In this document: positions 2,746-59,895 of the stretch, piece by piece
Layout: the number at the start of each line of letters is the position of its first letter
Position numbering within the stretch: position 1 is the first letter of the stretch
Assembly (NCBI RefSeq): GCF_028710345.1
Contig: NZ_JAQTUH010000008.1
Coordinates: 1 to 64,000 of the forward strand
Length of the DNA: 64,000 nucleotides
Direction of reading: 5' to 3'
Source: Sulfuricurvum sp.
GTDB lineage: Bacteria > Campylobacterota > Campylobacteria > Campylobacterales > Sulfurimonadaceae
Program-made: the position numbers and the translations under genes
The notes under the pieces: generated by a model
The model's input: only the letters and a program-made list of their open reading frames with translations
Told to the model about the DNA's origin: nothing
Database searches by the model: none

Positions 2746-5700
2746 TTAGTGGTTTAAAAACTCTTGGAGTGCGCGAGGTTTCATCCAGCTATCATCACCC
2801 ATGTACCCCATCGCTTCAATCGCGGCACGTGCGGCACTAAGAGTAGTGAAATAAGGGATTCCCATCCGTAAAACAATTTGACGGATTTGTTCTGCATCTT
2901 TTTTAGATGTTTTATTATCGGAGGTGTTGATAGCAAGGGAAATACCGCTATTTTTCATCATATCTTCGATATTAGGGCGACCTTCTGAAATTTTAAGAAC
3001 GGCTTCACACGGTATTCCTGCTGTTTCAATCGCTTTTTGGGTTCCACGGGTAGCAACCAAGGTAAAGCCTTGGGCATGTAAGCCGCGAGCGATTTCAGGG
3101 GCATGGACTTTATCCATTTCGATAAACGATAGGAAGCATACTCCCGCTGTTGGGATTTTGTTACCTGCGGCAAGTTGGCTTTTGGCGAAACTGACGCCGA
3201 AGTTATCACTGATTCCCATAACTTCTCCGGTCGATTTCATCTCAGGGGAGAGAACCAAATCGGCACCGTAGAGTTTATTGAACGGAAATACAGCTTCTTT
3301 AATAGCGACGTGCCCTTTGAGGCGTGGTTTGAGCAATCCATCGCTCTCCATCACAACATCATAGTTATCGTAAAATTTCAATGCATTGCGCAAGGTATCT
3401 CCGAGCATAACACGGGTAGCAACTTTTGCCAATGGGATACCGGTCGCTTTGGAGACAAACGGTACGGTACGAGATGCACGTGGGTTGACTTCAATCAAAT
3501 AGACTTCGTTTTGATAAATCGCATATTGGATATTGAGCAGACCGATAACTCCAAGACCCAATGCGATTTTTTTGGTTTGTTGTTCAACTTGGGCTTGAAT
3601 CTCACGACTGAGACTCACAGGAGGGAGTGAACATGCACTGTCTCCTGAGTGGATACCTGCCTCTTCGATGTGTTGCATAACCGATCCGATATAAACTTCA
3701 TGTCCATCGGTGATTGCATCGACATCAAGTTCTATCGCTTGATCAAGGAATTTATCGACTAGTACAGGAGAATCGTTACTGACCGATACGGCAACATCCA
3801 TATAGGTACGAAGTTCATCTTCGTTGTAGACGATACGCATAGCACGTCCACCCAAAACATACGAAGGGCGAACAAGAACGGGATAACCGAGTTTTTCCGC
3901 GATTTCAAATGCACCCTCTTTGGTCATAGAGAGACCATTTTCAGGCTGTTTTAACCCTTGTTCGATGACAAAAGCAGAAAATTTTTCACGGTTTTCTGCC
4001 AAATCGATTACTTCCGCCGACGTTCCAGCGATTTTAGCACCGATATTGTGGAGACCATTAGCCAGTTTAAGCGGTGTTTGTCCTCCAAAGTGGACGATGA
4101 TTCCATCGGGTTGTTCGCGTTCCACGATAGCGCGAACGTGTTCGAAATCAATTGGTTCAAAATAGAGGACATCAGAGGTATCATAATCGGTAGAGACGGT
4201 TTCAGGGTTACAGTTAACCATGATGGTCTCGATGCCCATCTCTTTGAGGGCAAATGAAGCGTGGACACAGCAGTAATCGAATTCAATCCCTTGACCGATA
4301 CGGTTAGGTCCACCCCCTAAAATCATCACTTTTTTCTTGTCGCTAATACGAGGTGCTTGAGCACCTAAGCGGGTAATATTGGTTGTCGAATAAAGATAGG
4401 GTGTAAGTGCTCCAAACTCTGCAGCACAGGTATCTACTTCGTTATATTCATGGGCAATAGAGAGGTTTTTACGTGCATTATAGACATCATTTTCTTTAAC
4501 GTTACCACCGTTTTTGGTGATAAGACGGGCAATGTTTTTATCAGAAAATCCTACCGTTTTAAGTGTGCGAAGCTGAACTTCATCACTCAATGTTGCGGTA
4601 GTAATCAAAGGTTCTTGGGCAATAATCTCTTCAATTTGGGTCAAGAACCATGGATCGATTTTAGAGAGATTGAAGATATCTTCTTTAGTGAGCCCCATGC
4701 GGAAACCTTGAGCAACATAGAGGATACGTTCACTGTTTGGACGGCGAATTTCGTGTTGGATAAACTCTAAGTCACCTTCGATTGGATCAAATCCGCTTAG
4801 TCCTGTCTCAAGTGAACAGAGTGCTTTTTGAACCGACTCTTTGAAAGTGCGTCCGATAGCCATAACCTCTCCGACCGATTTCATACTGGTGGTGAGAGTT
4901 GATTCTGCTTCGGGGAATTTTTCAAAAGTAAAGCGTGGAATTTTAGTAACGATATAGTCAATAACCGGTTCAAATGCGGCAGGTGTGCCAGTGATATCGT
5001 TGGTAATCTCATCGAGGGTAAATCCAACCGCGAGGAGGGTTGCTACTTTTGCGATAGGATATCCTGTTGCTTTAGATGCCAATGCAGATGAGCGTGATAC
5101 GCGGGGATTCATCTCGATAACAATCATACGTCCTGTTTCAGGATTTACGGAGAATTGTACGTTTGATCCCCCCGTATCAACACCGATTTCTCGCAAAATC
5201 GCAAACGATGCATCACGCATACGTTGGTACTCTTTATCGGTCAATGTTAGGGCAGGGGCAACGGTGATGGAGTCTCCTGTATGAACTCCCATAGGATCGA
5301 AATTTTCGATAGAACAGACGATGATACAGTTATCGGCTTTGTCGCGGATAACTTCCATCTCGTACTCTTTCCATCCCAAAAGTGACTCTTCAATCAAAAT
5401 TTCAGTAATCGGAGATTCATCAAGACCCCGTTGTGCGAGGAGTTTAAATTCATCGATGTTATAAGCAACACCGCTTCCTCCACCTGCTAGCGTGTATGAG
5501 GCACGGATGATGATTGGAAAACCGATAGTTTCTGCTGCCACCATCGCTTCGTCCATGTTATAAGCATAACGGGAAATAGGAAGATCCATTCCGATTTTGA
5601 CCATACACTCTTTAAATGCTTGGCGGTCTTCCCCTTTTTTAATGGCACTTGGGTTGGCACCGAGAAATTCTATCCCCTCTAACATCCCCATTTCATGCAT

Positions 5701-6003
5701 TTGCATCGCTGCATTGAGGGCAGTTTGACCCCCCATCGTAGGCAAAATCGCATCAACTTTTTCATCTTTTATAATTTGAGCAATAATTTCAGGTTTGATT
5801 GGTTCAATATAGGTACGATCGGCAAATTCAGGATCGGTCATAATCGTAGCAGGATTGGAGTTAATGAGGACAACACGGTATCCTAACTCTTTAAGGGTTT
5901 TAACCGCTTGTGTTCCTGAATAGTCAAATTCGCACGCTTGACCGATGACGATGGGACCTGAACCGATGAGGAGTATCGTTTTAATGTCGTCGCGTTTTGG
6001 CAT
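2746..6003 (-). CDS. carB: Carbamoyl phosphate synthase large subunit
   Basis: The roughly 1085-residue protein contains two ATP-grasp synthetase halves followed by an MGS-like allosteric domain, the full bacterial CarB layout. The N-terminal half starts [21 protein letters not shown], and the second half repeats the pattern with [19 protein letters not shown] near residue 555. The enzyme makes carbamoyl phosphate from bicarbonate, ammonia (from glutamine via CarA) and ATP, for arginine and pyrimidine synthesis in the cytoplasm. The chosen start is the ATG at 6003 (MPKRDD), with an AAGGGA ribosome site; an in-frame start six codons upstream (6021) has no better site. carA is not adjacent, which is common in this phylum. 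Confidence 0.97.
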
Positions 6004-6061
6004 GCTGTCCCTTTGTATCAAAAAATTTGTTGATTATAGGGTAAAGGCACTTAAAAGCTGA

Positions 6062-6823
6062 TTATCTTACGCGAGTTATGACATGAAAATAGGTAGGATT
6101 AGTGGCATAAAAATAAGGTTCAATGATAGCATTTTGGTATCCGCTAGCACGTGAAATAGAGCGAACTTTTCCTACTTTTAGCCCTGAGAGAAAGATATGA
6201 TCAAGCCCTGAGGTAGTCACTTCATCTCCTACAGCTATTGGAATCCATGTGGGGATAAATTCAACAATAAGCTGACGGGAATTGTTACCGCGTACAACTC
6301 CCGGGGCTTGTGAATTGCCTACGGATACTGCATAAGAGCTTTTGACATCACCGTTGAGAAGTGCCATAGGACGAGCGTGATTAGCAACAACAATCCCTGC
6401 AACATAGCCTCGATACAAAAGACCGTACACTCCATCAGGTTTAAAATTATCCATTTCAATCCACAGTTTATGAGGGTCACCCATACGTACATAGGATATT
6501 GTCCGCACTAATGCGACATCGGGAAGAGTTTGTAGCGCACTGTTTTCTTCTTTCATAAGGTTCTGATATTCATCAGAAATCTGATGTAGTTTTAGAACCT
6601 CACGTTCGTAGTAGCGATTCTGATTTTGAAGCTCTGCTATAGTGTCTGCTTGAGAAATATGTTTGGAAATAGCTGTTTTTATCGATTCAACCTGATGTAT
6701 ATAGGCAAGCTTAATGGTTTGTGAGAGATGGATAAATGGTGATTGTAACAGAGGACTAAAATAAAGAGCCCCCCCAATAGTGAGGGCGAAAAAAAAAGTG
6801 AGATTAAGGCGCTGTTTATTCAT
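6062..6823 (-). CDS. mreC: Rod shape-determining protein MreC
   Basis: The protein of about 253 residues starts at the ATG at 6823, which overlaps the mreB stop as ATGAATAA. A further upstream frame extension would run deep into mreB and is not credible. It has one N-terminal membrane segment (residues about 8-24), a coiled-coil stretch (about 50-85, IAELQNQNRYYEREVLKL), and then the beta-rich periplasmic MreC core including VAIGDEVTTSGLDHIF. MreC is a bitopic inner-membrane protein that links cytoplasmic MreB filaments to the peptidoglycan elongation machinery. The direct coupling to mreB supports the call. Confidence 0.92.
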   Translation of the reverse strand: MNKQRLNLTFFFALTIGGALYFSPLLQSPFIHLSQTIKLAYIHQVESIKTAISKHISQADTIAELQNQNRYYEREVLKLHQISDEYQNLMKEENSALQTLPDVALVRTISYVRMGDPHKLWIEMDNFKPDGVYGLLYRGYVAGIVVANHARPMALLNGDVKSSYAVSVGNSQAPGVVRGNNSRQLIVEFIPTWIPIAVGDEVTTSGLDHIFLSGLKVGKVRSISRASGYQNAIIEPYFYATNPTYFHVITRVR

Positions 6824-7853
6824 TATCGAAAAGTTCGTGGAGTTGATCGATCTCTTCGAGTGCTCTTCCTGTACCGCGAGCAACACAGAGCAGTGGCTCA
6901 TCAGCTACGTATACAGGGATTTTAATGGTTTCTGAGAGGAATTTATCGAGTTGGCGAATTAATGCTCCCCCTCCGGTGAGGATAACCCCGTTGTTGACAA
7001 TATCTCCCGCCAAATCCGGAGGCATATTTTCAAGTACATCTCGGACTGCTTCGAGGATCTCTTTGAGAGGATCGCGCATCGCTTCACGCGCATCTTCACT
7101 GGAGAGTTCTAATGACGTCAAAAGACCCTCTACTTGGTCACGCCCGTTGATAATCATTTTGAGTTCTTGTGCTAATGGCATAGCGGTACCGATATTGATT
7201 TTAATATCTTCCGCGATACGCTCACCGATAAGGAGATTGTATTTGCGTTTTACATAATCCATGATTGCGCGGTCGATTTTATCTCCTGCTACACGGATAG
7301 AACGACATAAAACAAGACCACCCAAAGAGATAACACCAATCTCGGTAGTTCCCCCACCGATATCAACGATAATGTTCCCCTTTGGCTCACGAATATCAAT
7401 CCCTGCACCGATAGCTGCTGCCATCGGCTCATCTATAAGATAGACTTCACGAGCACCCGCACTCATCGCTGATTCTCGTACCGCTTTACGCTCTACCTGA
7501 GTAAGACCGTATGGGATACAGATGATGATACGTGGGCTAATTAGGCTGGTTCGACCATGTGCTTTTTCGATAAATCGGCGAATCATTTTTTCGGTCATAT
7601 CAAAGTCAGCGATAACGCCGTCTTTCATAGGACGGATAGCTTTAATGTTTCCCGGAGTTTTTCCGACCATCTCTTTGGCTTCACGCCCGACAGCCAGCAC
7701 TTTTTGTTGACCGTATTTTTCTGTCTTTACGGCAACAACGGAAGGCTCATTAATAACGATCCCTTTCCCTTTGACGATGACGAGGGTATTGGCGGTACCC
7801 AAATCGATAGAGAGATCATTTGAGAACATTCCGATGAGTTTATTAAATAACAT
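6816..7853 (-). CDS. mreB: Rod shape-determining protein MreB
   Basis: The 345-residue bacterial actin homologue opens with SNDLSIDLGTANTLV (phosphate-1 loop). It carries VDIGGGTTEIGVISLGG (phosphate-2) and GVILTGGGALIRQLD (adenosine motif). It assembles ATP-dependent filaments on the inner membrane that guide lateral cell-wall synthesis. The ATG at 7853 has an AGGAG ribosome site. It follows clpX by 10 bp and overlaps mreC by 8 bp, so it is part of the fabZ-lpxA-clpX-mreB-mreC run. Length and motifs are normal for the family. Confidence 0.97.
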   Translation of the reverse strand: MLFNKLIGMFSNDLSIDLGTANTLVIVKGKGIVINEPSVVAVKTEKYGQQKVLAVGREAKEMVGKTPGNIKAIRPMKDGVIADFDMTEKMIRRFIEKAHGRTSLISPRIIICIPYGLTQVERKAVRESAMSAGAREVYLIDEPMAAAIGAGIDIREPKGNIIVDIGGGTTEIGVISLGGLVLCRSIRVAGDKIDRAIMDYVKRKYNLLIGERIAEDIKINIGTAMPLAQELKMIINGRDQVEGLLTSLELSSEDAREAMRDPLKEILEAVRDVLENMPPDLAGDIVNNGVILTGGGALIRQLDKFLSETIKIPVYVADEPLLCVARGTGRALEEIDQLHELFDNE

Positions 7854-7863
7854 TTAGTATCTC

Positions 7864-9096
7864 CTAGGCGCTTTTTTGAGTCGTTTTTTTAATATAAACG
7901 GGTAAAGTAGCTTCATCAACTACCTCTTTAGTGATGATAACTTCGTATCCACTGTATTCGGGGAGTTCATACATAACATCACCCATAATCTCTTCTAAAA
8001 TTGCTCGTAAACCCCGCGCTCCTGTTTTGCGGGCAAGTGCTTTTGCTGCAATAGCGTTAAGTGCCTCTTTTTCAAAAGTGAGTTCAACATTATCAATAGC
8101 AAAAAGTTTTGTGTATTGTTTTACAAGGCAGTTTTTAGGTTCGGTGAGGATACGAACCATCTCTTCCTCGGTAATTTTATTGAGTGATGCGATAATCGGT
8201 AGACGACCGATAAGCTCTGGGATAAGTCCGTAGCTGACCAAATCATCGGGTTCAACGTTTTCAAAACTGTCATCGCCCTCTGCGACACTCCGTTTTTCTT
8301 GACCAAATCCCATAACATTTTTACCTCGTTTACGCTCTAAAATTTGACCCAGTCCATCAAATGCTCCTCCACAGATGAAGAGGATTCCTGAGGTATCGAT
8401 TTGGATAAAATCTTGGTTCGGGTGTTTGCGTCCCCCTTTGGGAGGGATATTGACGACGGCACCTTCGATGATTTTAAGAAGGGCTTGCTGAACCCCTTCG
8501 CCGGATACGTCACGGGTGATTGAACGGTTCTCGCTCATTCGAGAAATTTTATCAATTTCATCGATAAAAACAATCCCTTGTTGTGCCCGCTCGATATCTC
8601 CATCGGCGGCTTGGAGCAGTTTTGTAAGGATGTTTTCAACATCTTCACCGACGTATCCCGCTTCGGTAAGACTCGTAGCATCAGCAATAGCAATCGGAAC
8701 GTTCAAGACACGAGCAATGGTTTGTGCCATGAGTGTTTTACCGCTTCCTGTCGGTCCGATAAGGAGGACGTTGGACTTGGCAATTTCAGTATCATCGGTT
8801 ACATCGTGATTTTTAAAGATACGTTTGTAATGGTTGTAGACTGCTACGGAGAGGAGTTTACGAGAACGTTCTTGACCGATTATGTATTGGCTCAAAAAGG
8901 TATTAAGCTCTTTAGGGGTGAGGAGCTGTGTATCAAGTGAGGTGTGTGGTGATGTAGACTCACCCCCATTTTCCCCAAACATAATTTTGTAAGCAGAAAA
9001 GACACAGTTTTTGCAGATATAGACATTATTGCTGGTAATGAGTGGATTATTATCACTCTCTTCTGCTCCGCAAAAGCTGCAATGACGATGGATCAT
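7864..9096 (-). CDS. clpX: ATP-dependent Clp protease ATP-binding subunit ClpX
   Basis: The 410-residue AAA+ unfoldase carries the N-terminal C4 zinc finger (CSFCG...ICKNC, residues about 8-31), Walker A GPTGSGKT (about 113-120) and Walker B FIDEID. The [13 protein letters not shown] sensor-2 region is near residue 365. ClpX hexamers unfold tagged proteins and thread them into ClpP, which is not in this window. The start ATG at 9096 overlaps the lpxA stop by four bases (ATGA), so translation is coupled to lipid A synthesis genes. This gene order is found widely in Campylobacterota. Confidence 0.97.
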
Positions 9097-9878
9097 GATT
9101 CTTTCCTTTCGAAGGGGATACCCCGTTTAGTGTTGATAATAAAAGTTGCCATATTTTTAACATAGTCACTTGTTGTCGATTCGAGTAATACGGTTGCTAC
9201 CTCTTGGAGAGGTTTCCCTGATTCGAAAAGCTCTCGATAAGCCGCTCGAAGGGCATCGATATCGACACGTTCGACATGACGACGCAAACCGTTGAGATTG
9301 AGTCCACGCAAGATCGCACGGTTTCCCTCTGCCAAACAATACGGCGGGACATCTTGGGAGAGGGCTGATGCTCCCGCGATCATTGCGTAATCGCCGATTT
9401 TCACAAACTGGTGGATAGGGGTCATTCCGCCAATAACGGCATAATTTCCCATCTCAACATGTCCTGCAAGGGTCGCGGCGTTGGCAAGGATACAGTGATC
9501 ACCGATAATAACATCGTGACCTAAATGGACGTATCCCATAAAAAGATTGTGATTGCCAACAACAGTTTTACTGCCACCACCCGCTGTTCCTGGGTTAAAT
9601 AAGGTAAATTCTCGAATGGTATTATTATCACCAATAATGAGTTCAACCTCTTCACCCGCATATTTTAAATCCTGAGGAATAGAGCCTAAAACCGCGTGGG
9701 AGAAGATAGTATTGTTTTCCCCGATGGTGGTGTTGCCATAAATGCAGGCACTTGCCGCTATTTTTGTCCCGTTTCCGATTTTGCTTTTAGAGGAGATAAA
9801 ACAAAACGGTCCGATTTCGACATCATCACCAATGATGGCACCCTCTTCGATTACTGCGAGTGGAGAAATAATACTCAT
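9093..9878 (-). CDS. lpxA: UDP-N-acetylglucosamine acyltransferase LpxA
   Basis: The 261-residue protein is built of hexapeptide repeats (left-handed beta helix), for example [21 protein letters not shown] and [21 protein letters not shown]. It has the catalytic His region [12 protein letters not shown] and a C-terminal helical part ([20 protein letters not shown]). It transfers a 3-hydroxyacyl chain from acyl-ACP to UDP-GlcNAc, the first step of lipid A synthesis. It starts five bases after the fabZ stop and overlaps clpX by 4 bp. Length is normal (E. coli 262). Confidence 0.96.
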
Positions 9879-9883
9879 GCGAC

Positions 9884-10327
9884 CTACTTGTCCACGATCA
9901 TTGCTTTAAGTTCAGCTTCGGAGACGAGGGTGTCATCGACGTATGCTTTCCCCTCTAGCACCCAAATAGAGCCTTTATGTTTGACCACTTTCATACGGTA
10001 TTCTAAACGATCTCCTGGACGGACAGGGGAGCGAAATTTTGCACCGTCGATACTCATGAAGTAGACCACTTTATGAGAAGCTTCTTCTTCGGTCATATCC
10101 ATGCTTTGAAATGCTAAAATACCGCCTGCTTGTGCCATCCCCTCCAAAATCATTACCCCCGGATAAATCGGGTGACCTGGAAAATGACCTTCGAAAATTT
10201 GTTCACCGATAGTGACGTTTTTAAATCCGATAAGAGATTCATTAGGGGTGAGAGCTGTTACTCGATCAACCAGTAAAAAAGGGAAACGGTGAGGTAAAAT
10301 TTTTTGTATTTGAACAACATCTATCAT
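9884..10327 (-). CDS. fabZ: 3-hydroxyacyl-ACP dehydratase FabZ
   Basis: The 147-residue hot-dog fold enzyme has the hallmark [13 protein letters not shown] start, the [20 protein letters not shown] segment with the catalytic His and Glu, and an [13 protein letters not shown] segment. It dehydrates 3-hydroxyacyl-ACP in fatty acid elongation and competes with LpxA for the same acyl-ACP substrate; the two genes are adjacent and co-oriented. It is the first gene of the fabZ-lpxA-clpX-mreBC-carB run. About 80 bp separates it from the antiporter gene upstream. Confidence 0.96.
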
Positions 10328-10408
10328 ATTTGTAGTACACCTTGGGTAAAAAATCGCCCAATTTTACCGTAAATTTTGTTAATAAATCATAAGAGAATTG
10401 TAAATGCG

Positions 10409-12013
10409 CTAACTACTGGTTTTATATGCACGTTGTACCAATAAATCTGCCACTTCAAAACTCGCATCAACCAATTCGATTTCCGATAAATCGCGTAAAC
10501 TTTTGCGCTCTTCAACACTGTCAATTTTTAAGATTATTTTGGCTTTAGGATCAAAGCGGAGTACCGCTTCACTGATAAGACGACGCTTTTGTTCGCTGAT
10601 CATCGTAATAATGATTGCTTTTGCCTCTTTTACCATCAACGATTCCAAAACTGGGAGTTTATCGAGGTGTCCGAAATACGCCATGTAGTTGAGCTTACGG
10701 GCATGGAGAACATGTTTTAGGTTGTCTGAGATGATAATAAAATTAGCCCCTTGTGAGTGAAGATTGGATGCAACGATTTTCCCCAATACCCCAAATCCTG
10801 CCACGATAATGTGTTCAGATCGCTCAATAGGGGTAATGACGTCCGATTCGTAAAACTCTTTTTCGAAATAAGAGGAGAGTTTATAAATATTTCCTATAAT
10901 AAAAGGGGTGAGAATCATCGAAATAACACTCACTAAAATCAAAAAACTTGCCATCTCTTCACTAATGAGTTTTTGTGCTCCCGCGAGGGCGAAAATAGCA
11001 AAAGAGAACTCTCCGATTTGTGCGAGAGAGAGTGCCGTTTTTGCCGAGGTGTTTTTGTCCGAATTACGGCGGATAATGGCATAAATAACTACTGCTTTAA
11101 AGAGCATTGCAAAGATAAAAATAAAGGTGATAATGTGGATGTTCTCCGCAAAATAGAGCATATCGATTTTCGTCCCCACCCCGAAGAAAAAAGCCCCTAG
11201 CAAGAGGTCTTTATAGGTAGAAATATCGGATTCGACTTTGACGTTATAGCGAGTATCCGCGATAATCATCCCTGCGATAAATGCCCCCAGTGAGTAGGTA
11301 AATCCCATGCTATGGGCGAGCAATGCCGCCCCTATAAGGATAGAGAAAACCGAGCCTAAAAAGAGCTCTTCGAGTTCTGTTTTCGCTGAAAACTGCAACA
11401 GTGCATTGACGATTTTATCTCCGATTGTAAACATAAATACGACGACAAAAACAGCGGAGAGAAGAGTTTTGAGTAGTACTTCACCTAGTGATAGGGTATC
11501 GTTGGATAAAAAGGTGATGAGCAATAAAATCGGGATAACGGCGAGATCTTGAAAAATCAAAATTCCCATCGATTTTTGACCATAGGGTGTATGGATGTCC
11601 TTAGACTCTTTGAGATAGGTGAGGACGATGGCGGTGGAGGATAGGGAAAATGCTAATGAGATGATGAGCGAGGTGTTGAAATCGAGATGAAACAGAAAAT
11701 GTGAGAGTAAAAAGATCACGACGACGCTGAAGAGTACTTGGAGTATCCCGTTGGTGAGGAGGATATCTTTCATCTTTTTGATTTTATCCAGACTCAGTTC
11801 CAACCCGATAGTAAACATCAAAAAAACGATCCCAAACTCCCCGATAAAATCGAGTGAATCGTTCGCTGAACCGTTAAACCCGAACAAGGTACTGATGATT
11901 GTTCCCGTCGCGATATAGCCGATGATATGCGATATCCCGAACCGTTTTAGGATGATGTTGAGCACCGTCGCGATGGCAACAGTTAAAAAGATTGATAAGA
12001 GTAAAGTTTCCAT
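10409..12013 (-). CDS. CPA2 family cation/proton antiporter with RCK/TrkA-N domain (KefB-like)
   Basis: The 534-residue product has about 12 hydrophobic segments in residues 1-380. These include GYIATGTIIS and the acidic EFGIVFLMFTIGLELS motif of the Na/H exchanger fold. A cytoplasmic nucleotide-binding TrkA-N domain follows (IIVAGFGVLGKIVASNL, near residue 400). It is likely a K+/H+ or Na+/H+ antiporter regulated through NAD(H) or another ligand on the RCK domain. The ATG at 12013 (METLLLS) is preferred; the frame also offers a TTG six codons upstream. Neither start has a strong ribosome site. The Kef ancillary flavoprotein is not adjacent, so a glutathione-gated Kef role is not supported. 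Confidence 0.85.
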   Translation of the reverse strand: METLLLSIFLTVAIATVLNIILKRFGISHIIGYIATGTIISTLFGFNGSANDSLDFIGEFGIVFLMFTIGLELSLDKIKKMKDILLTNGILQVLFSVVVIFLLSHFLFHLDFNTSLIISLAFSLSSTAIVLTYLKESKDIHTPYGQKSMGILIFQDLAVIPILLLITFLSNDTLSLGEVLLKTLLSAVFVVVFMFTIGDKIVNALLQFSAKTELEELFLGSVFSILIGAALLAHSMGFTYSLGAFIAGMIIADTRYNVKVESDISTYKDLLLGAFFFGVGTKIDMLYFAENIHIITFIFIFAMLFKAVVIYAIIRRNSDKNTSAKTALSLAQIGEFSFAIFALAGAQKLISEEMASFLILVSVISMILTPFIIGNIYKLSSYFEKEFYESDVITPIERSEHIIVAGFGVLGKIVASNLHSQGANFIIISDNLKHVLHARKLNYMAYFGHLDKLPVLESLMVKEAKAIIITMISEQKRRLISEAVLRFDPKAKIILKIDSVEERKSLRDLSEIELVDASFEVADLLVQRAYKTSS

Positions 12014-12119
12014 AGTGACATTATAGTGCAAGGTGAGTACTAGGGGTGGTTAAAAAGTGGGCGGTTACGATTGTATGTAGAGAAGTGAAGATTTAATATC
12101 TCATCTTCGTTATTTGGTT

Positions 12120-12785
12120 CTACTTCAAGACTCGTGACACTTTATGTGGAATTATATATGTTCCATCTAGCATATGGTCTATGATCTGGATAGCCAAAGA
12201 TAATTGTTCTTTATTATGTGCTTGTACTTCATGAGCGGCTTTATTTCCGAGAACTCTGAGTTTATGAAGTATATCAACGCCTTCTTTGGTTACTATGGAC
12301 TTCTCATGAAGAGAATTTATTTGCTGGTTAAGGTCTTTACCTTCAGCTTTTTGATCTTTGCAAATGGTTTCTATTAAAGCTCTAATTCCAATACCAGCTA
12401 AAATATTTTGTTCGTTTTCAATTGCTAAAATAGTTTCTTGATATATACCTTGAACTTCAACTGGTAATAAATAAATATTTATGGCTTTAAGCCCTTCAAA
12501 GCGACTTGGATAGTATTTAATTGTTTCATAATGGTATATTCCATCTATGTCAACATCATAATCTTCTGAACAAGTTGAACTCACTCTAAACGAGATATTT
12601 TCACAGCCGAGGCATTGAATTATTTGATTCTTTACAGTCCAATCGACTGAATTTCCACCACCGTGATCTTCACTACCATTTTCACAATAAGAGGAAATTA
12701 TTTTATGCGATGTTTCTCGGCAACATTCTTTACAAATAAATTTATGTGTTCCCTCTAAATTGTTTTCTAAAATGAAATCTTTCAA
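12120..12785 (-). CDS. DUF4145 domain-containing protein
   Basis: The 221-residue soluble protein has N-terminal zinc-ribbon-like cysteines (CKECC near 18-22 and CLGC near 78-81) with Asp/Gly-rich loops between them. An alpha-helical DUF4145 region follows (residues about 125-205, with IGIRALIETICKD and KLRVLGNKAAHE). DUF4145 occurs alone or fused to restriction and other defence enzymes, but its biochemical activity is not established. The gene stands alone between the antiporter and a REP-like repeat, its base composition is more AT-rich than its neighbours, and no partner gene is next to it. It is therefore probably an acquired accessory gene. The function is unknown. Confidence 0.7.
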   Translation of the reverse strand: MKDFILENNLEGTHKFICKECCRETSHKIISSYCENGSEDHGGGNSVDWTVKNQIIQCLGCENISFRVSSTCSEDYDVDIDGIYHYETIKYYPSRFEGLKAINIYLLPVEVQGIYQETILAIENEQNILAGIGIRALIETICKDQKAEGKDLNQQINSLHEKSIVTKEGVDILHKLRVLGNKAAHEVQAHNKEQLSLAIQIIDHMLDGTYIIPHKVSRVLK

Positions 12786-55232: not shown

Positions 55233-55692
55233 TATCTTTTTGTCTGTTGCTCTTATAGTTGTAACAACAGCATATTATACGGGGATTTCTTTTTCGATAC
55301 CGATATTTAACACTGTTACTTTTGGGATAGCTTTAATCTCATTTATTATTTTATCGAATCTGTTAGCAACAGAAAACGCAAAATTTTATATCAAATTAAT
55401 TTTTGCTTTTGGATGGGTATACACATTTGTATTTGGAATATTTTTATTAAACATGCTAATAGATAATCGAAATGCTGATTTTTCAAATATAGATGAAACT
55501 CAATTTTGTACACAATCAATGTATGGTTTTGTGGGAACAGATGGTGGTACTGAAATGCGTGCGTATAAAAGATTCTGGATTTTTGATAAAGAAATTGGAA
55601 ATTATCGTTTATCCGATTATTATCAAAGTGCGAACGATACGAAGGGTATTTATGAATTTTGTAAAGATAAAAAGATAATTGAGCTCAGATAA
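55219..55692 (+). CDS. Membrane protein of unknown function
   Basis: The 157-residue protein has three membrane helices in the first half (about 5-24, 29-48, 57-80). A polar C-terminal half is rich in Tyr, Asn and Asp, with Cys residues (FCTQS, EFCKDK). No family is recognised. It is the third gene of the operon with the gene at 54473 and the VanZ-like gene, and its tail overlaps the convergent pseudouridine synthase gene by eight bases. Confidence 0.55.
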   Translation: MKKRNIFLSVALIVVTTAYYTGISFSIPIFNTVTFGIALISFIILSNLLATENAKFYIKLIFAFGWVYTFVFGIFLLNMLIDNRNADFSNIDETQFCTQSMYGFVGTDGGTEMRAYKRFWIFDKEIGNYRLSDYYQSANDTKGIYEFCKDKKIIELR

Positions 55693-56398
55693 ACGTATTT
55701 TCCAATATACGATACTCCCCCTCTTTTAAATCCCCCAGTGTCAATTCCCCAAATGACAAGCGGTGCAGTGCGGTGACATGATTTCCTACCGCCGCGAACA
55801 TCCGCCGTACTTGATGATAGCGCCCTTCGGTAATTTCTAATGTGGCATGGGTTTCGTCGATTACGGTAAGTTTGGCGGGTAGGCAGGGGCTTTTTTCACC
55901 GTTTAACATCAATGTCCCCGAAGCGAAAATCTCTGCTTCATTCCCGTTTAACGCTCTATCTAATGTCGCTTCGTAGATTTTAGCAACATGGTGGCGCGGG
56001 GAGGTGAGGCGGTGGAGTAATGCTCCATCATCGGTGAGGAGAAGCAGTCCACTCGTCTCTTTGTCGAGCCGTCCGATCGTGGAGATTTTGGGATCGCGCA
56101 CTCTCCATCGCGGCGGGAGGAGATCATAGACGAGTCTCCCTTCTCCTTCATCATGACTACAGATCAAACCTATGGGCTTATGCATCAAAATCACCATCCC
56201 AGAGGGGGGATCGAGGGGTTCGCTATCAAAACAGATTTCATCATGAGAGACTTTGGTATCGTTTTTGAGGGGGAGATTTTCAGCATGGGTGATGATCCCT
56301 TCTCGTATGAGGGATGCAACCTCTTTGCGGGTGCAATACCCCAATGAGGAAAGGAGTTTGTCCAGACGGGTTTGTACTTTAGATCTTGAATTTTGCAC
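55685..56398 (-). CDS. RsuA/RluB-family pseudouridine synthase with S4 domain
   Basis: The 237-residue protein has an S4 RNA-binding domain (about 8-60: TRLDKLLSSLGYCTRKEVASLIREGI). A catalytic domain follows with ISTIGRLDKETSGLLLLTDDG (GRLDxxTSGLLLLT, catalytic Asp) and the end EGRYHQVRRMFAAVGNHVTALHRLSFG. It makes a single pseudouridine in 16S or 23S rRNA; which one is not visible. It starts at GTG four bases after the DUF3226 gene stop, so it is transcribed with the upstream ATPase pair or from a promoter inside it. Confidence 0.93.
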   Translation of the reverse strand: MQNSRSKVQTRLDKLLSSLGYCTRKEVASLIREGIITHAENLPLKNDTKVSHDEICFDSEPLDPPSGMVILMHKPIGLICSHDEGEGRLVYDLLPPRWRVRDPKISTIGRLDKETSGLLLLTDDGALLHRLTSPRHHVAKIYEATLDRALNGNEAEIFASGTLMLNGEKSPCLPAKLTVIDETHATLEITEGRYHQVRRMFAAVGNHVTALHRLSFGELTLGDLKEGEYRILENTFI

Positions 56399-56402
56399 GA
56401 AA

Positions 56403-57053
56403 TTAAAATAGTTGTAAAAAGGCTTTTAAATCAGTAAGTGCTTTGTGCTCAAAATTCCAGATAGGTTTTTTGATGGCAATCTCATTTTTACATTTTCTAT
56501 CAGCTTGTGTTTGTTCTTTTTTGGTGCAGGTATCGTATCTTAGATAGTTATTGACCCAAAATTTATCAAAATCTTTATCACTGATCTTTTTGCCGGAAGC
56601 TATAAGACAATCTTTCCATGCACTTAAACAATCCGCGAAAGTTGAATCTTCAGTTTTAATTGTTTTGAGTAGTGTTTCGAGTTCGCCATATCCATCGATA
56701 TTAGTGATATAACAAACAAATTCTATATTGAGTTTGTCACTTCTGATGGGTGTGTTAATGTTTTTAATCTCAATAGTATCATCAAACTGTTTAACGACAG
56801 AGTCAATCAGTGCTAACCGATTTTCGATACCTTCTTTATCCGCATCGAGAATGATGCCAATTTTAGTGTAGTCATCGAATTTAACTTCGTCTAGGCACTC
56901 AAATAATTTTTTTTCTGATAGTCCATTTAAACACTCATAGTCATCTATTTTACATATTGGCTGATTAATTTTAATATCAATTTTAAGTGATTCACTTAAT
57001 GCTTCGATAAAATATTTGTCATTATGACTTTCGACGATTAAAAGATTACTCAC
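56403..57053 (-). CDS. DUF3226 Toprim-like protein (partner of the AAA ATPase)
   Basis: The protein of about 216 residues has Toprim-like motifs: an N-terminal Glu in NLLIVESHNDKYFI and a DxD in KIGIILDADKEG (near 64-76). These are the metal-binding residues of Toprim nucleases. GTG at 57053 is chosen: it overlaps the ATPase stop (GTGAGTAA) and has GGAGAG upstream; an ATG five codons earlier (57068) has no ribosome site. An ATPase plus Toprim pair is the layout of OLD and PARIS defence systems (PARIS uses DUF4435 instead). The pair sits in one block ahead of the pseudouridine synthase, with more AT-rich DNA than its neighbours. Confidence 0.75.
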   Translation of the reverse strand: MSNLLIVESHNDKYFIEALSESLKIDIKINQPICKIDDYECLNGLSEKKLFECLDEVKFDDYTKIGIILDADKEGIENRLALIDSVVKQFDDTIEIKNINTPIRSDKLNIEFVCYITNIDGYGELETLLKTIKTEDSTFADCLSAWKDCLIASGKKISDKDFDKFWVNNYLRYDTCTKKEQTQADRKCKNEIAIKKPIWNFEHKALTDLKAFLQLF

Positions 57054-58008
57054 CTCTAAACTCTCCATTATGAGATAGTGAATACTCTAATTGTTCTTTG
57101 TCCCGTTTTTTTACATTAATTTGATTGGTTTTTTTGCTTTGGTAAAATTCGAAATAATAAGTATCTTTATCATCAAATTTTTGTTGAATACGATTGAATG
57201 ACTCAATACACTCTTTGGAATGAGTTGTTGCAAAGACTTGGACATTTTGTTCTTTGGAAACTTTTAAAATAATTTCCCATAGTTCATCAAGTTGAGTGTA
57301 ATGAATGCCATTGTCAAGCTCATCAATAAAGAGATATCCATTTTCGCATTTAAACAGTGATGTAATGATAGAGACCAAATGTCTCGCACCATCCCCAAGT
57401 TCAGTGAGGTCAAGCCATACACCATTTACTCGACATTGTGGTATATCGCCAGCGATAATTTTTTCGATTCTATTATCAAATGTATGTAAAATATCATTTA
57501 AAAATTGTTCTTTATCTTTTTTTTGAATAGAGAGATAAGCATCTTTAATTTGACTATTACCAAATCCAAAATTATCGATAAATACTATATTGTGTATTAA
57601 ATTAAGATCATAAGAGAATTCATTAGCATTAACATCAATGATTTGTTTATTAAATTCAAAATGGTATTTTTTAATTCCTTCGTTTTCATCGATATTAAAA
57701 TGAGCGTTATTGATATTGGAGGAGACTGAGATATTATTGGTTTGTTCTACAAATTTTTTAGTATCATCTATAAGTCTATTTTCTAAAATATTAAGATTTT
57801 CTCGCATATATTTAATACTTTGTAGAGAACCAACAAAGCTTTTAATATTCATAGCCATTATATTGATATAACATGCTTCCATAAAAGAAGTTTTACCTAC
57901 ATTATTTTTTCCACCAATGAGATTAACTCTACCTAACCCTTCGGCTTTAAAATTGTGAAAACATTTAAAATTATTAATTTCTATAGTGTTTATAAAATGA
58001 TTGTTCAT
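57046..58008 (-). CDS. AAA_15/AAA_21-type ATPase (SMC/ABC-like, defence-associated)
   Basis: The protein of about 320 residues has Walker A GGKNNVGKT (32-40), an ABC-like signature region LTELGDGARHLVSIITSLF, Walker B NGYLFIDELDNGIH and an H-loop VFATTHSKECIES. The insertion between Walker A and the signature is about 160 residues with low homology, as in the AAA_15 family. ATG 58008 (MNNHF) has GGAGG upstream. It is coupled to the Toprim-like DUF3226 gene (8-bp overlap). Such ATPases act as sensors or gates for the nuclease in OLD/PARIS-type systems. It lies between the ABC-F gene and the pseudouridine synthase, an insertion site in otherwise housekeeping genes. Confidence 0.8.
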   Translation of the reverse strand: MNNHFINTIEINNFKCFHNFKAEGLGRVNLIGGKNNVGKTSFMEACYINIMAMNIKSFVGSLQSIKYMRENLNILENRLIDDTKKFVEQTNNISVSSNINNAHFNIDENEGIKKYHFEFNKQIIDVNANEFSYDLNLIHNIVFIDNFGFGNSQIKDAYLSIQKKDKEQFLNDILHTFDNRIEKIIAGDIPQCRVNGVWLDLTELGDGARHLVSIITSLFKCENGYLFIDELDNGIHYTQLDELWEIILKVSKEQNVQVFATTHSKECIESFNRIQQKFDDKDTYYFEFYQSKKTNQINVKKRDKEQLEYSLSHNGEFRGE

Positions 58009-58062: not shown

Positions 58063-59895
58063 CTAGAGCTCTTCAATCTTCGCCTCGTATTCGCTCTCGA
58101 TACGTGCTATCTCATCGCTCGCGATTTCGAGTCGTTCGAACAGCTCTTCGATCATCTTCTCATCATCTCCGACGCTTTTGGAGAGTTCGAGGAGTTTGGA
58201 TGTCTCCCCTTGGTTTGAATAGGTCGTTAGGAGTTCATGAGAAGTCTTTAGTTTCTCTTCGAGCTTCATGATGGTATTTTCGCAGGTGTCCACCTCTTTT
58301 TTGAGGGGGCTGAGGAGTTTTGAACGCTCTTGGATGAGGGCGGCACGAAGCTGTTTATTCTCTTTTTTGTTGACGTTTTGGGTCACTTTGGGAGGTTTTG
58401 GAGCATCACTGATCTCTTCATCCCATCCGATTTTCTCTAAAAAGTCATCATAGGTGCCATCGAAAAACTCAGCGTTCCCCTCACGGAAGATGATGAGCTG
58501 ATCGGCTAACTCGCGCAATAGCATCTCGGAGTGGGTGACGATGACCACAGAACCCTCGAACCGCTTTAATGCGTCGCAGAGCGAATCGATCGATTGCATA
58601 TCGAGGTGGTTGGTCGGCTCATCGAGGAAGAGGAGGTTGGCAGGGGTGGCGATGATTTTGCCCAGCATAACGCGGCTTCGCTCCCCCCCAGAGAGGATAG
58701 AGATTTTTTTATCGGCATCGTCACCGCTGAACATCATCGTCCCGCAGATTCCACGGATACGGACATTTTGCAACGTATTGTCGGCACTTTGTATCTCTTC
58801 GGTGATGGTGCGGTTTTTGTCGAGGCGGTCGATGTTGGTTTGACCGAAGTGGGCGATGGCAGTGGAGGGGTGAGATATGATCTCACCGTTGGGTGTTAAA
58901 ACCCCTGCAAGGGTGTTTAGGAGGGTTGATTTTCCCTTACCGTTTTTCCCGATAATGGCGAGACATTTTTTTGCCTCTAGTGCAAAGGAAATATTGCGAA
59001 AGAGGAGTTCATCGGCACTGTAGCCGAACGAGAGCTCTTTAACCTGCATAATCACTTTGGCGGGAGTAGGTTTATACGAGAATGAAAAAGAGAGGTCTTT
59101 CTCTCCCTCAAGTGATTCCATAACACCCATTTTATCCAACTCTTTTTGCTTGGATTGTGCCATTACTGCTGAAGAAGCACGGGCTTTGTTGCGGGCGACG
59201 AAATCCTCTAATTCGGCACGCTTCTTGTCGTGGTTGATTTTGGTCTTCTCATACAGCTCGTCTTCGCTTGCCATCATCTCATAATATTTGTGGCTGTTTC
59301 CTTTGATGATACTGACACAGCGGCGGCGCAATCCCATCGTATGGGTCGTGACTGAGTCCATAAAATCACGGTCATGGGTGATGAGGATCACTTCCCCCTC
59401 GAAAGAACGGATAAACGAGGCGAGCCAGCGGAGTGAGACAATGTCGAGGTAGTTGGTCGGCTCATCGAGGAGTAGCAGATTCGGTTCGGTGACGAGGAGT
59501 TTCACGAGGTTGAGTCGGATTTGATACCCACCTGAAAAACTGAGGGGATCTTTTTCCAAATCGTCCTGCGTAAACCCTAGACCGAAGAGAATTTTTTCGA
59601 CGCGATAGACCTCATGCTCCATATCACCTGTGAGAACCGAGGCACACTCTTCACGGACGGTTTTATGGGTGAAATGGAGGTGCTGACGTAGCGTTCCGAT
59701 GCGGTAGTTTCTAGGGATAATGACCTCACCCGAATCATAAGGCTCTTCATCCAAAATGATTTTAAAGAGGGTCGATTTACCCGTCCCGTTACGTCCGACA
59801 AATCCGACTTTGTTTCCGGCGTTCAGTTTGAGAGATAGGTTCTCAAAGAGAACCCGAGTGCCGAAGCTTTTGGTAAGGTTGTTGATCTGAATCAT
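58063..59895 (-). CDS. ABC-F family ATPase (translation factor-like)
   Basis: The 610-residue protein has two ABC domains without membrane segments. Walker A is GRNGTGKSTLFK and GKNGKGKSTLLN; signatures are SFSGGYQIRLNLVKLL and LSGGERSRVMLGKII; Walker B is LLLLDEPTNYLDI and LLFLDEPTNHLDM. A linker with MAQSKQKELDKMGVME and a C-terminal coiled coil (about 525-610) follow. ABC-F proteins bind the ribosomal E site and relieve stalled translation; the C-terminal coiled coil resembles Uup. It ends the tight minus-strand run Rrf2-flhA-DHH-ABC-F, 8 bp after the DHH gene. Confidence 0.93.
   Translation of the reverse strand: MIQINNLTKSFGTRVLFENLSLKLNAGNKVGFVGRNGTGKSTLFKIILDEEPYDSGEVIIPRNYRIGTLRQHLHFTHKTVREECASVLTGDMEHEVYRVEKILFGLGFTQDDLEKDPLSFSGGYQIRLNLVKLLVTEPNLLLLDEPTNYLDIVSLRWLASFIRSFEGEVILITHDRDFMDSVTTHTMGLRRRCVSIIKGNSHKYYEMMASEDELYEKTKINHDKKRAELEDFVARNKARASSAVMAQSKQKELDKMGVMESLEGEKDLSFSFSYKPTPAKVIMQVKELSFGYSADELLFRNISFALEAKKCLAIIGKNGKGKSTLLNTLAGVLTPNGEIISHPSTAIAHFGQTNIDRLDKNRTITEEIQSADNTLQNVRIRGICGTMMFSGDDADKKISILSGGERSRVMLGKIIATPANLLFLDEPTNHLDMQSIDSLCDALKRFEGSVVIVTHSEMLLRELADQLIIFREGNAEFFDGTYDDFLEKIGWDEEISDAPKPPKVTQNVNKKENKQLRAALIQERSKLLSPLKKEVDTCENTIMKLEEKLKTSHELLTTYSNQGETSKLLELSKSVGDDEKMIEELFERLEIASDEIARIESEYEAKIEEL

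What the first reader, a model, noticed from the sequence alone, without database searches (positions are those of the whole stretch)
56403..58008. AAA ATPase plus DUF3226 (Toprim-like) pair, PARIS/OLD-like but with a different nuclease family
The ATPase has Walker A/B, signature and H-loop motifs, and the second protein has a Toprim Glu (VESHND) and DxD (ILDADKEG). The genes overlap by 8 bp. PARIS uses AAA_15 plus DUF4435, and OLD fuses ATPase and Toprim. This pair has the same logic with DUF3226. It is inserted between the ABC-F gene and the pseudouridine synthase gene.
Basis: partly seen in the sequence, partly recalled or inferred. Interest (0 to 1): 0.55.

Follow-up and report, generated by a model that had tools for sequence, protein, structure and literature searches.

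The report
Two-gene ATPase–nuclease phage-defence candidate
Two overlapping bacterial genes, an ATP-driven switch and a predicted DNA- or RNA-cutting enzyme, sit between two housekeeping genes and look like a small anti-virus defence module of a kind already catalogued as a candidate, for which I found no published test.

Summary
Window 56403-58008 (minus strand) encodes a compact ABC/OLD-type ATPase (320 aa) and a DUF3226 protein with a conserved Toprim-like Glu…DxD triad; the genes overlap by 8 bp if the second starts at GTG 57053. "PARIS/OLD-like logic" is a fair analogy, but the nuclease matches neither AriB nor AbiLii. Both halves match PADLOC candidate PDC-M38 (1.5e-43; nuclease only 4.7e-9); I found no functional test of it. 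The pair is a unit: an ATPase adjoins DUF3226 in 29 of 29 fetched non-own phylum loci and 23 of 24 loci from the genome collection.
The new part is the site. Of 36 same-genus genomes with the pseudouridine-synthase gene, 30 have it overlapping ABC-F, three carry ATPase+DUF3226 pairs, two carry a nucleotidyltransferase/HepT-like pair beside it, one is cut off. The three pairs are not each other's closest relatives; one joins a close ATPase (48%) to a very different DUF3226 nuclease (21%), suggesting effector exchange. Most likely this is an abortive-infection module in which the ATPase controls a Toprim nuclease. Defence, trigger and target are inferred.

The parts
57046..58008 (-). Gene A: ABC/SMC/OLD-type ATPase, 320 aa; Walker A G33-T40, signature-region G205, Walker B D229-E230, H-switch H263; hypervariable middle 54-137; conserved C-terminal RGE
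   Evidence: Pfam AAA_15/AAA_21; PADLOC PDC-M38A 1.5e-43, AbiLi 1.2e-42; conserved residues; AlphaFold pLDDT 73.6 with residues 54-137 below 50; Foldseek/VIA matches to retron PtuA, Septu PtuA, retron Eco8, Rad50/SMC heads; PtuA, Rad50, OLD, RecF and AriA chains by profile; region identities
56403..57053 (-). Gene B: DUF3226 Toprim-like putative nuclease, 216 aa from GTG 57053 (221 aa from ATG 57068); triad E13, D75, D77 (221-aa numbering)
   Evidence: Pfam DUF3226 2.1e-22; PADLOC PDC-M38B 4.7e-9, residues 8-100; triad conservation; model pLDDT 75.5 with VIA match to OLD Toprim 6njv Z 8.3 over 160 residues
57046..57053 (-). 8-bp gene overlap GTGAGTAA, probably translational coupling of A and B
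   Evidence: 8-bp overlap with a GTG start in 19 of 58 printed junctions
58063..59895 (-). Flank: ABC-F gene, upstream border of the insertion slot
   Evidence: ORF (the name ABC-F is by recall from the sequence); its end overlaps the pseudouridine-synthase gene in 30 of 36 same-genus genomes
55685..56398 (-). Flank: pseudouridine synthase (S4 + PseudoU_synth_2), downstream border of the slot
   Evidence: Pfam PseudoU_synth_2 2.5e-20; site comparison

Best explanation
It is a two-gene, horizontally acquired anti-phage (probably abortive-infection) module. The ATPase (A) dimerises or oligomerises like OLD/PtuA/AriA ATPases and holds or positions the Toprim nuclease (B). A phage-derived trigger, perhaps read by the hypervariable middle of A (residues 54-137), changes A's nucleotide state and activates or frees B. 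B then cuts nucleic acid with a metal-dependent Glu/DxD site and stops the cell and the phage. Shown here: the gene pair, its motifs, the Toprim-like model fold (moderate), conservation as a unit, patchy distribution, and a chromosomal slot with changing contents. Inferred: anti-phage role, restraint of B by A, nuclease activity, trigger. The target is open; host RNA such as tRNA (as for AriB) is my slightly favoured guess over DNA.
For: Both proteins match PADLOC PDC-M38 models. Unit conservation: A next to B in 29 of 29 non-own phylum loci fetched (27 by BLAST; 2 more by profile) and 23 of 24 genome-contig loci, one of these with only a piece of A. Patchy: a close relative of B in 2 of 41 same-genus genomes, DUF3226 in 47 of 397 phylum genomes and 1 of 14 control genomes. 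Slot: 30 empty, 3 ATPase+DUF3226, 2 nucleotidyltransferase/HepT-like, 1 contig end among 36 genomes. Same-site pairs are not a clade in the A tree (p-AU 2.4e-5). Partner exchange in G013: A 48%, B 21%. Catalytic residues kept. B model resembles OLD Toprim domains; A model resembles PtuA, retron and SMC-type ATPases and A's profile finds AriA. Precedents: AriB is an E26-dependent tRNA nuclease (PMC12409363, passages); F. nucleatum AbiLii is toxic in E. coli (PMC3985639, passages) and AAA/TOPRIM_OLD pairs were validated as toxin and neutraliser (PMC10440598, passages).
Against: No phage or nuclease assay. Neighbours of relatives elsewhere (109 of 138 listed ORFs scanned) gave no recurrent defence family in the families shown other than AAA-ATPase types and Uma2 (3 members); the AAA hits include further pairs of the same kind in L010 (only the first 25 of 202 and 196 families seen), so no clear defence-island signal. 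One scan of viral contigs confirmed no relative. B's Foldseek matches are weak, none at E<=0.001, and its VIA Z of 8-9 is shared by unrelated Rossmann-like proteins. B is acidic (pI 4.9), which does not by itself suggest a nucleic-acid binder. L. lactis AbiLii was not toxic in E. coli, and F. nucleatum AbiLi did not relieve AbiLii toxicity (PMC3985639, passages), so restraint by the ATPase is not general.
Confidence: 0.6

Rival explanations
1. Same module, but B attacks invading DNA directly (nicking or degradation as in Gabija/OLD), with A as nucleotide-sensing regulator, without programmed cell arrest.
For: OLD C-terminal Toprim domains are among the best fold matches of B (6njv Z 8.3, 6nk8 Z 8.2), and OLD/GajA cut DNA (PMC10568477, passages).
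Against: The stand-alone small Toprim partner with a known target (AriB) cuts tRNA (PMC12409363, passages). Nothing in the calls tells DNA from RNA.
Confidence: 0.2
2. A toxin-antitoxin-like module kept for its own maintenance or against plasmids, with A as antitoxin and B as toxin, and no dedicated phage role.
For: The slot seems to hold a nucleotidyltransferase/HepT-like pair in two genomes. AAA/TOPRIM_OLD pairs behaved as toxin and neutraliser in one study (PMC10440598, passages). Overlapping genes suggest coupled expression.
Against: In PARIS deletion of either gene is non-toxic, which its authors take to exclude a toxin-antitoxin system there (PMC9122126, passages). Only 1 record of the plasmid collection had a match, and it is 4.09 Mb long.
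Confidence: 0.12
3. A host repair, cell-cycle or translation-linked function, as for the archaeal OLD protein Cran1, coupled here to the ABC-F and pseudouridine-synthase genes.
For: Co-directional with two translation-related genes (the translation link of ABC-F is recalled). Cran1 shows that OLD proteins can serve the cell cycle (PMC12796447, passages).
Against: The site is empty in 30 of 36 same-genus genomes, and 39 of 41 lack a close relative of B. None of 53 non-own loci shows both flanking genes within the flanks held.
Confidence: 0.08

Closest known systems
PADLOC candidate PDC-M38 (M38A ATPase + M38B DUF3226)
   Same: Both proteins hit its models. DUF3226 proteins paired with ATPases in L010 and L090 hit M38B at 1e-61 and 1.5e-65.
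   Different: The window's B is a divergent branch (M38B only 4.7e-9, residues 8-100) that also occurs in Thiotrichaceae, Cyanobacteria, Desulfonema and Bacteroidota. No experimental result for PDC-M38 found: 0 papers hold the name; of 14 papers found I opened one, in passages.
AbiL (AbiLi ATPase + AbiLii RloB-type Toprim), Lactococcus
   Same: ATPase plus a separate Toprim-type gene; A hits AbiLi at 1.2e-42.
   Different: B does not hit AbiLii at E<=1. AbiLii is described as RloB/TOPRIM_OLD (PMC10440598, passages).
PARIS (AriA + AriB, class 4 OLD)
   Same: Split ATPase/Toprim; A hits AriA models at 9.2e-19 and A's profile hits AriA chains of solved structures at 4.2e-6.
   Different: B is DUF3226, not DUF4435/AriB.
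OLD class 1, Gabija GajA, retron-Eco8 OLD
   Same: Related ATPase domain and an OLD-like Toprim fold for the model of B.
   Different: Here ATPase and Toprim are separate genes, and the insert holds no helicase or reverse transcriptase gene.

Membership tests
PDC-M38 (PADLOC candidate) | ATPase matching PDC-M38A | tested here: met
   1.5e-43, 147.8 bits; PADLOC's own cut-off not available
PDC-M38 (PADLOC candidate) | Adjacent nuclease matching PDC-M38B | tested here: met
   4.7e-9, 34.3 bits, residues 8-100 only; weak, so a divergent member
PARIS | AriB/DUF4435 Toprim partner | tested here: not met
   No DUF4435 or AriB hit at E<=1; the G013 same-site nuclease hits AriB weakly, 1.2e-4
PARIS | AriA-type AAA_15/AAA_21 ATPase | tested here: met
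   AriA 9.2e-19, AAA_15 4.8e-16, AAA_21 2.7e-12
PARIS | Activation by an anti-restriction protein (Ocr) and tRNA cleavage | not testable with these tools
   needs experiment
AbiL | AbiLi ATPase | tested here: met
   1.2e-42
AbiL | AbiLii partner | tested here: not met
   No AbiLii hit at E<=1 for the window protein; the G013 same-site nuclease hits AbiLii weakly, 7.7e-4
OLD class 1 | ATPase and Toprim fused in one protein | tested here: not met
   Two ORFs
Gabija | GajB UvrD-like helicase gene adjacent | tested here: not met
   The insert between ABC-F and the pseudouridine synthase holds only A and B
Retron OLD (class 3) | Adjacent reverse transcriptase and ncRNA | tested here: not met
   No third gene of that size in the insert; ncRNA not searched
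Toprim nuclease fold | Toprim fold with conserved Glu and DxD | tested here: met
   E/D/D in 49, 49 and 48 of 49; model resembles OLD Toprim 6njv Z 8.3, rmsd 4.3, 160 aligned; Z is moderate and no Foldseek hit at E<=0.001
Toprim nuclease fold | Metal-dependent nuclease activity | not testable with these tools
   needs biochemistry

The most novel reading that the evidence does not exclude
The ABC-F/pseudouridine-synthase junction in this genus is a small exchange slot in which an OLD-like ATPase platform is kept while its Toprim effector is swapped for another DUF3226 subfamily, so that one sensor lineage is paired with alternative nucleases (possibly with different targets) at a fixed chromosomal place. 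DUF3226 would then be a third stand-alone Toprim effector class besides AriB and RloB/AbiLii.
Probability: 0.3. Interest if true: 0.6.

Novelty: new member of a known kind. Interest (0 to 1): 0.42.

Why it matters
ATPase+DUF3226 pairs are fairly common (DUF3226 in 47 of 397 genomes of this phylum), yet a full-text search for DUF3226 gave 0 papers in the library held. The window gives a compact, apparently intact pair, empty sites in sister genomes, and a natural effector swap at the same place. These make a question testable: does the ATPase set the trigger while the Toprim sets the target?

Tried and rejected
Housekeeping link to the translation genes: rejected, since none of 53 non-own loci shows both neighbours within the flanks held and the site is empty in 30 of 36 genomes.

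Defence-island enrichment around relatives: no recurrent defence family among those shown other than AAA-ATPase types and Uma2 (the first 25 of 202 and 196 families seen). I gave 109 of the 138 ORFs listed; left out were all eight each of L024, L026 and L028, two each of L013 and L020, and one of L004. That the AAA-type PADLOC hits come from the same few members is my inference. Not evidence for a defence role.

Phage or plasmid carriage: one viral-contig scan confirmed none of 15 pattern matches. The plasmid and phage collections gave 1 and 2 tblastn records. The plasmid record is 4.09 Mb; the one 'phage' contig I opened carries glyQ/glyS and other chromosomal-looking genes, so both look mislabelled.

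Solved-structure sequence search for B: nothing significant with the single protein, a profile of 18 or an L010 relative. Foldseek for B: no hit at E<=0.001; retron Eco2 is third at 0.025. AriB does not appear in the 50 VIA rows shown; that excludes nothing.

Whether the hypervariable middle of A follows the effector: its identity to the window is 22% in G013 (other nuclease) and 25% in L060 (same nuclease clade), so no sign of it.

Trees: one search set aside 8 loci without a full pair (49 kept); one search used 48 (L084 left out, the L090 fusion cut to its ATPase part); one search used 35, dropping 14 (five long-branch rows, a six-row clade with L084's neighbours, L084, and the near-duplicates L013 and L022). 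AU test of the four-row A clade in the B tree gave p 0.051, borderline; window + G013 gave 0.0022. In one search the G013 nuclease sits on a long branch, so its exact place is unsure; only its exclusion from the window's clade is used. The tested groups were chosen after the identities had been seen.

Papers: full-text searches for DUF3226, PDC-M38 and PF11536/PH0156/MJ1322 gave 0 papers. Of seven papers I read only passages found by term: PMC9122126, PMC10568477, PMC12796447, PMC10440598, PMC3985639, PMC12409363, PMC12988326. Other papers were seen as listings only.

Full report
What is there. Between an ABC-F gene (58063-59895) and a pseudouridine-synthase gene (55685-56398), all on the minus strand, lie two ORFs. 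Gene A (58008 to 57046) is a 320-aa ATPase: AAA_15 4.8e-16, AAA_21 2.7e-12. Gene B is 221 aa from ATG 57068 or 216 aa from GTG 57053: DUF3226 2.1e-22, with a sub-threshold Toprim hit of 0.017. With the GTG start the genes overlap by 8 bp (GTGAGTAA). An 8-bp overlap with a GTG start occurs in 19 of 58 junctions printed (one locus printed twice), from several phyla; six more have an 8-bp overlap with ATG; most others overlap by 1, 4 or 7 bp or not at all, and five gave no second frame of 120 aa or more. I therefore take GTG 57053 as the more likely start.

Catalytic anatomy. In 49 aligned A+B pairs, B keeps E13 (49), D75 (49) and D77 (48, one E), and A keeps Walker A K39 (48, one gap), Walker B D229 and E230 (49 each), signature-region G205 (49) and H263 (49). 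Among 18 closer relatives the triad is invariant. The AlphaFold model of B (pLDDT 75.5) is confident over most of its first 120 residues and weak around 125-200. VIA-align places OLD Toprim domains (6njv Z 8.3, rmsd 4.3, 160 aligned; 6nk8 Z 8.2, rmsd 4.6, 152 aligned) and an uncharacterised archaeal protein (2p62, Z 9.1, rmsd 4.5, 172 aligned) among its best matches, but unrelated Rossmann-like proteins score as high over about 105 residues, and Foldseek gives nothing at E<=0.001. The fold evidence therefore rests on Z and coverage together with the conserved triad. The model of A (pLDDT 73.6, residues 54-137 below 50) matches retron and Septu PtuA, retron Eco8, chains of the AriA-AriB complex (the output does not say which subunit) and Rad50/SMC heads. 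A profile of A finds PtuA, RecF, Rad50, OLD and AriA chains by sequence.

A conserved unit. Of 24 loci found in the genome collection, 23 carry A, in L006 only a piece, before B; L025 has only a partial B match. DUF3226 occurs in 47 of 397 genomes of the phylum and in 1 of 14 control genomes. Of the 30 loci returned there one is the window; of the other 29, 27 show A by BLAST and the remaining two, L074 and L087, by a profile built without them. Loci of the other matches were not fetched. Several relatives have split or shortened A or B frames (L006, L015, L023, L024, L026, L068), which could be decay or assembly error.

An insertion slot. Among 41 same-genus genomes, 36 have the pseudouridine synthase at E<=1e-60. 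In 30 the end of ABC-F overlaps the start of that gene, so the site is empty. In three (the window, G020, G013) an A+B pair lies between them, the insert measuring about 1.5-1.9 kb. In two (G008, G040) a nucleotidyltransferase plus HepT-like pair lies next to the pseudouridine synthase; their contigs end before any ABC-F, so only one border is seen. In one (G015) the contig ends. For G008 the two genes hit NTP_transf_2 (4.3e-9) and HepT-like (4e-8), and the first hits PADLOC PDC-S09 (1.8e-17); G040 was judged by the similarity of its ORFs, the first of which runs off the contig. None of the 53 non-own relatives' loci searched (L004-L027 and L059-L088 less L064) shows both ABC-F and the pseudouridine synthase near the pair within the flanks held, so I saw the slot only in this genus.

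Exchange of pairs and of effectors. The three same-site pairs are not a clade in the ATPase tree: holding window, G020 and G013 together is rejected with p-AU 2.4e-5, and window with G020 with 2.6e-4 (35 of 49 rows; groups chosen after seeing the identities). In the 48-row ATPase tree the window groups with G013 and G215 (96/99) and then G248 (100/99). In the nuclease tree the window, G215 and G248 lie in one 24-row clade (100/100) and G013 lies outside it; window with G013 is rejected at p 0.0022, while the four-row A clade held in the B tree gives 0.051. Identities say the same: G013's ATPase is the closest of the 48 others (48%) but its nuclease is among the most distant (21%) and only 175 aa long, still a DUF3226 hit (5.4e-8). 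The simplest reading is that one side was replaced. Within A, the ends are conserved between the two (75% over residues 1-53, 51% over 138-320) and the middle is not (22% over 54-137), which fits a fast-evolving sensor.

What it is called. PADLOC's PDC-M38 is the nearest catalogue entry: A 1.5e-43, B 4.7e-9. That M38B means DUF3226 is shown by other ATPase-paired DUF3226 proteins in L010 and L090, which hit M38B at 1e-61 and 1.5e-65. A also hits AbiLi (1.2e-42) and AriA (9.2e-19), but B hits neither AbiLii nor AriB at E<=1. A 2026 paper describes PDCs as putative candidates found by guilt-by-embedding, with validation pending for most of those in the core defensome (PMC12988326, passages). So this is a divergent member of a known candidate kind that works like PARIS/AbiL but belongs to neither.

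How it probably works. By analogy with AriA/AriB and AAA/TOPRIM_OLD pairs, A is the nucleotide-dependent platform and sensor, and B the effector nuclease. The restraint or activation step, trigger and target are inference. Against a simple antitoxin role for A: F. nucleatum AbiLi did not neutralise AbiLii, and L. lactis AbiLii was not toxic in E. coli; PARIS was reported not to behave as a toxin-antitoxin pair.

Limits. No functional data; no clear neighbourhood signal for defence islands elsewhere; no viral carriage found in one scan. The defence reading rests on family resemblance, patchiness, slot behaviour and effector exchange.

Noticed in passing
L090 (G013:C61), 5585-8547: A second ATPase+DUF3226 pair in a sister genome: a 717-aa protein with a C-terminal AAA_15/AAA_21 ATPase and a long N-terminal part that looks ParB-like by eye (no profile hit), overlapped by a 270-aa DUF3226 protein (M38B 1.5e-65).
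   Followed up: partly
L010 (Thiomargarita), 4917-12661: A tandem array of three complete ATPase+DUF3226 pairs and the start of a further ATPase match at the locus end.
   Followed up: partly
L053 2226-2943 and L051 2228-2908 (G008, G040): A nucleotidyltransferase/HepT-like gene pair beside the pseudouridine synthase, apparently in the same slot; contigs end before the other border.
   Followed up: partly
G000:C39 (L091), 1-957: A 4.4-kb contig of the window's own assembly carries a second, 81% identical pseudouridine-synthase gene after an ABC-F end, with an empty slot: probably a second organism in the assembly.
   Followed up: no
window 57046-57053 and relatives: The very end of the ATPase is conserved as RGE, also in relatives where the genes do not overlap (L009, L016, L018), so the protein end itself may matter, perhaps as a contact with B.
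   Followed up: no
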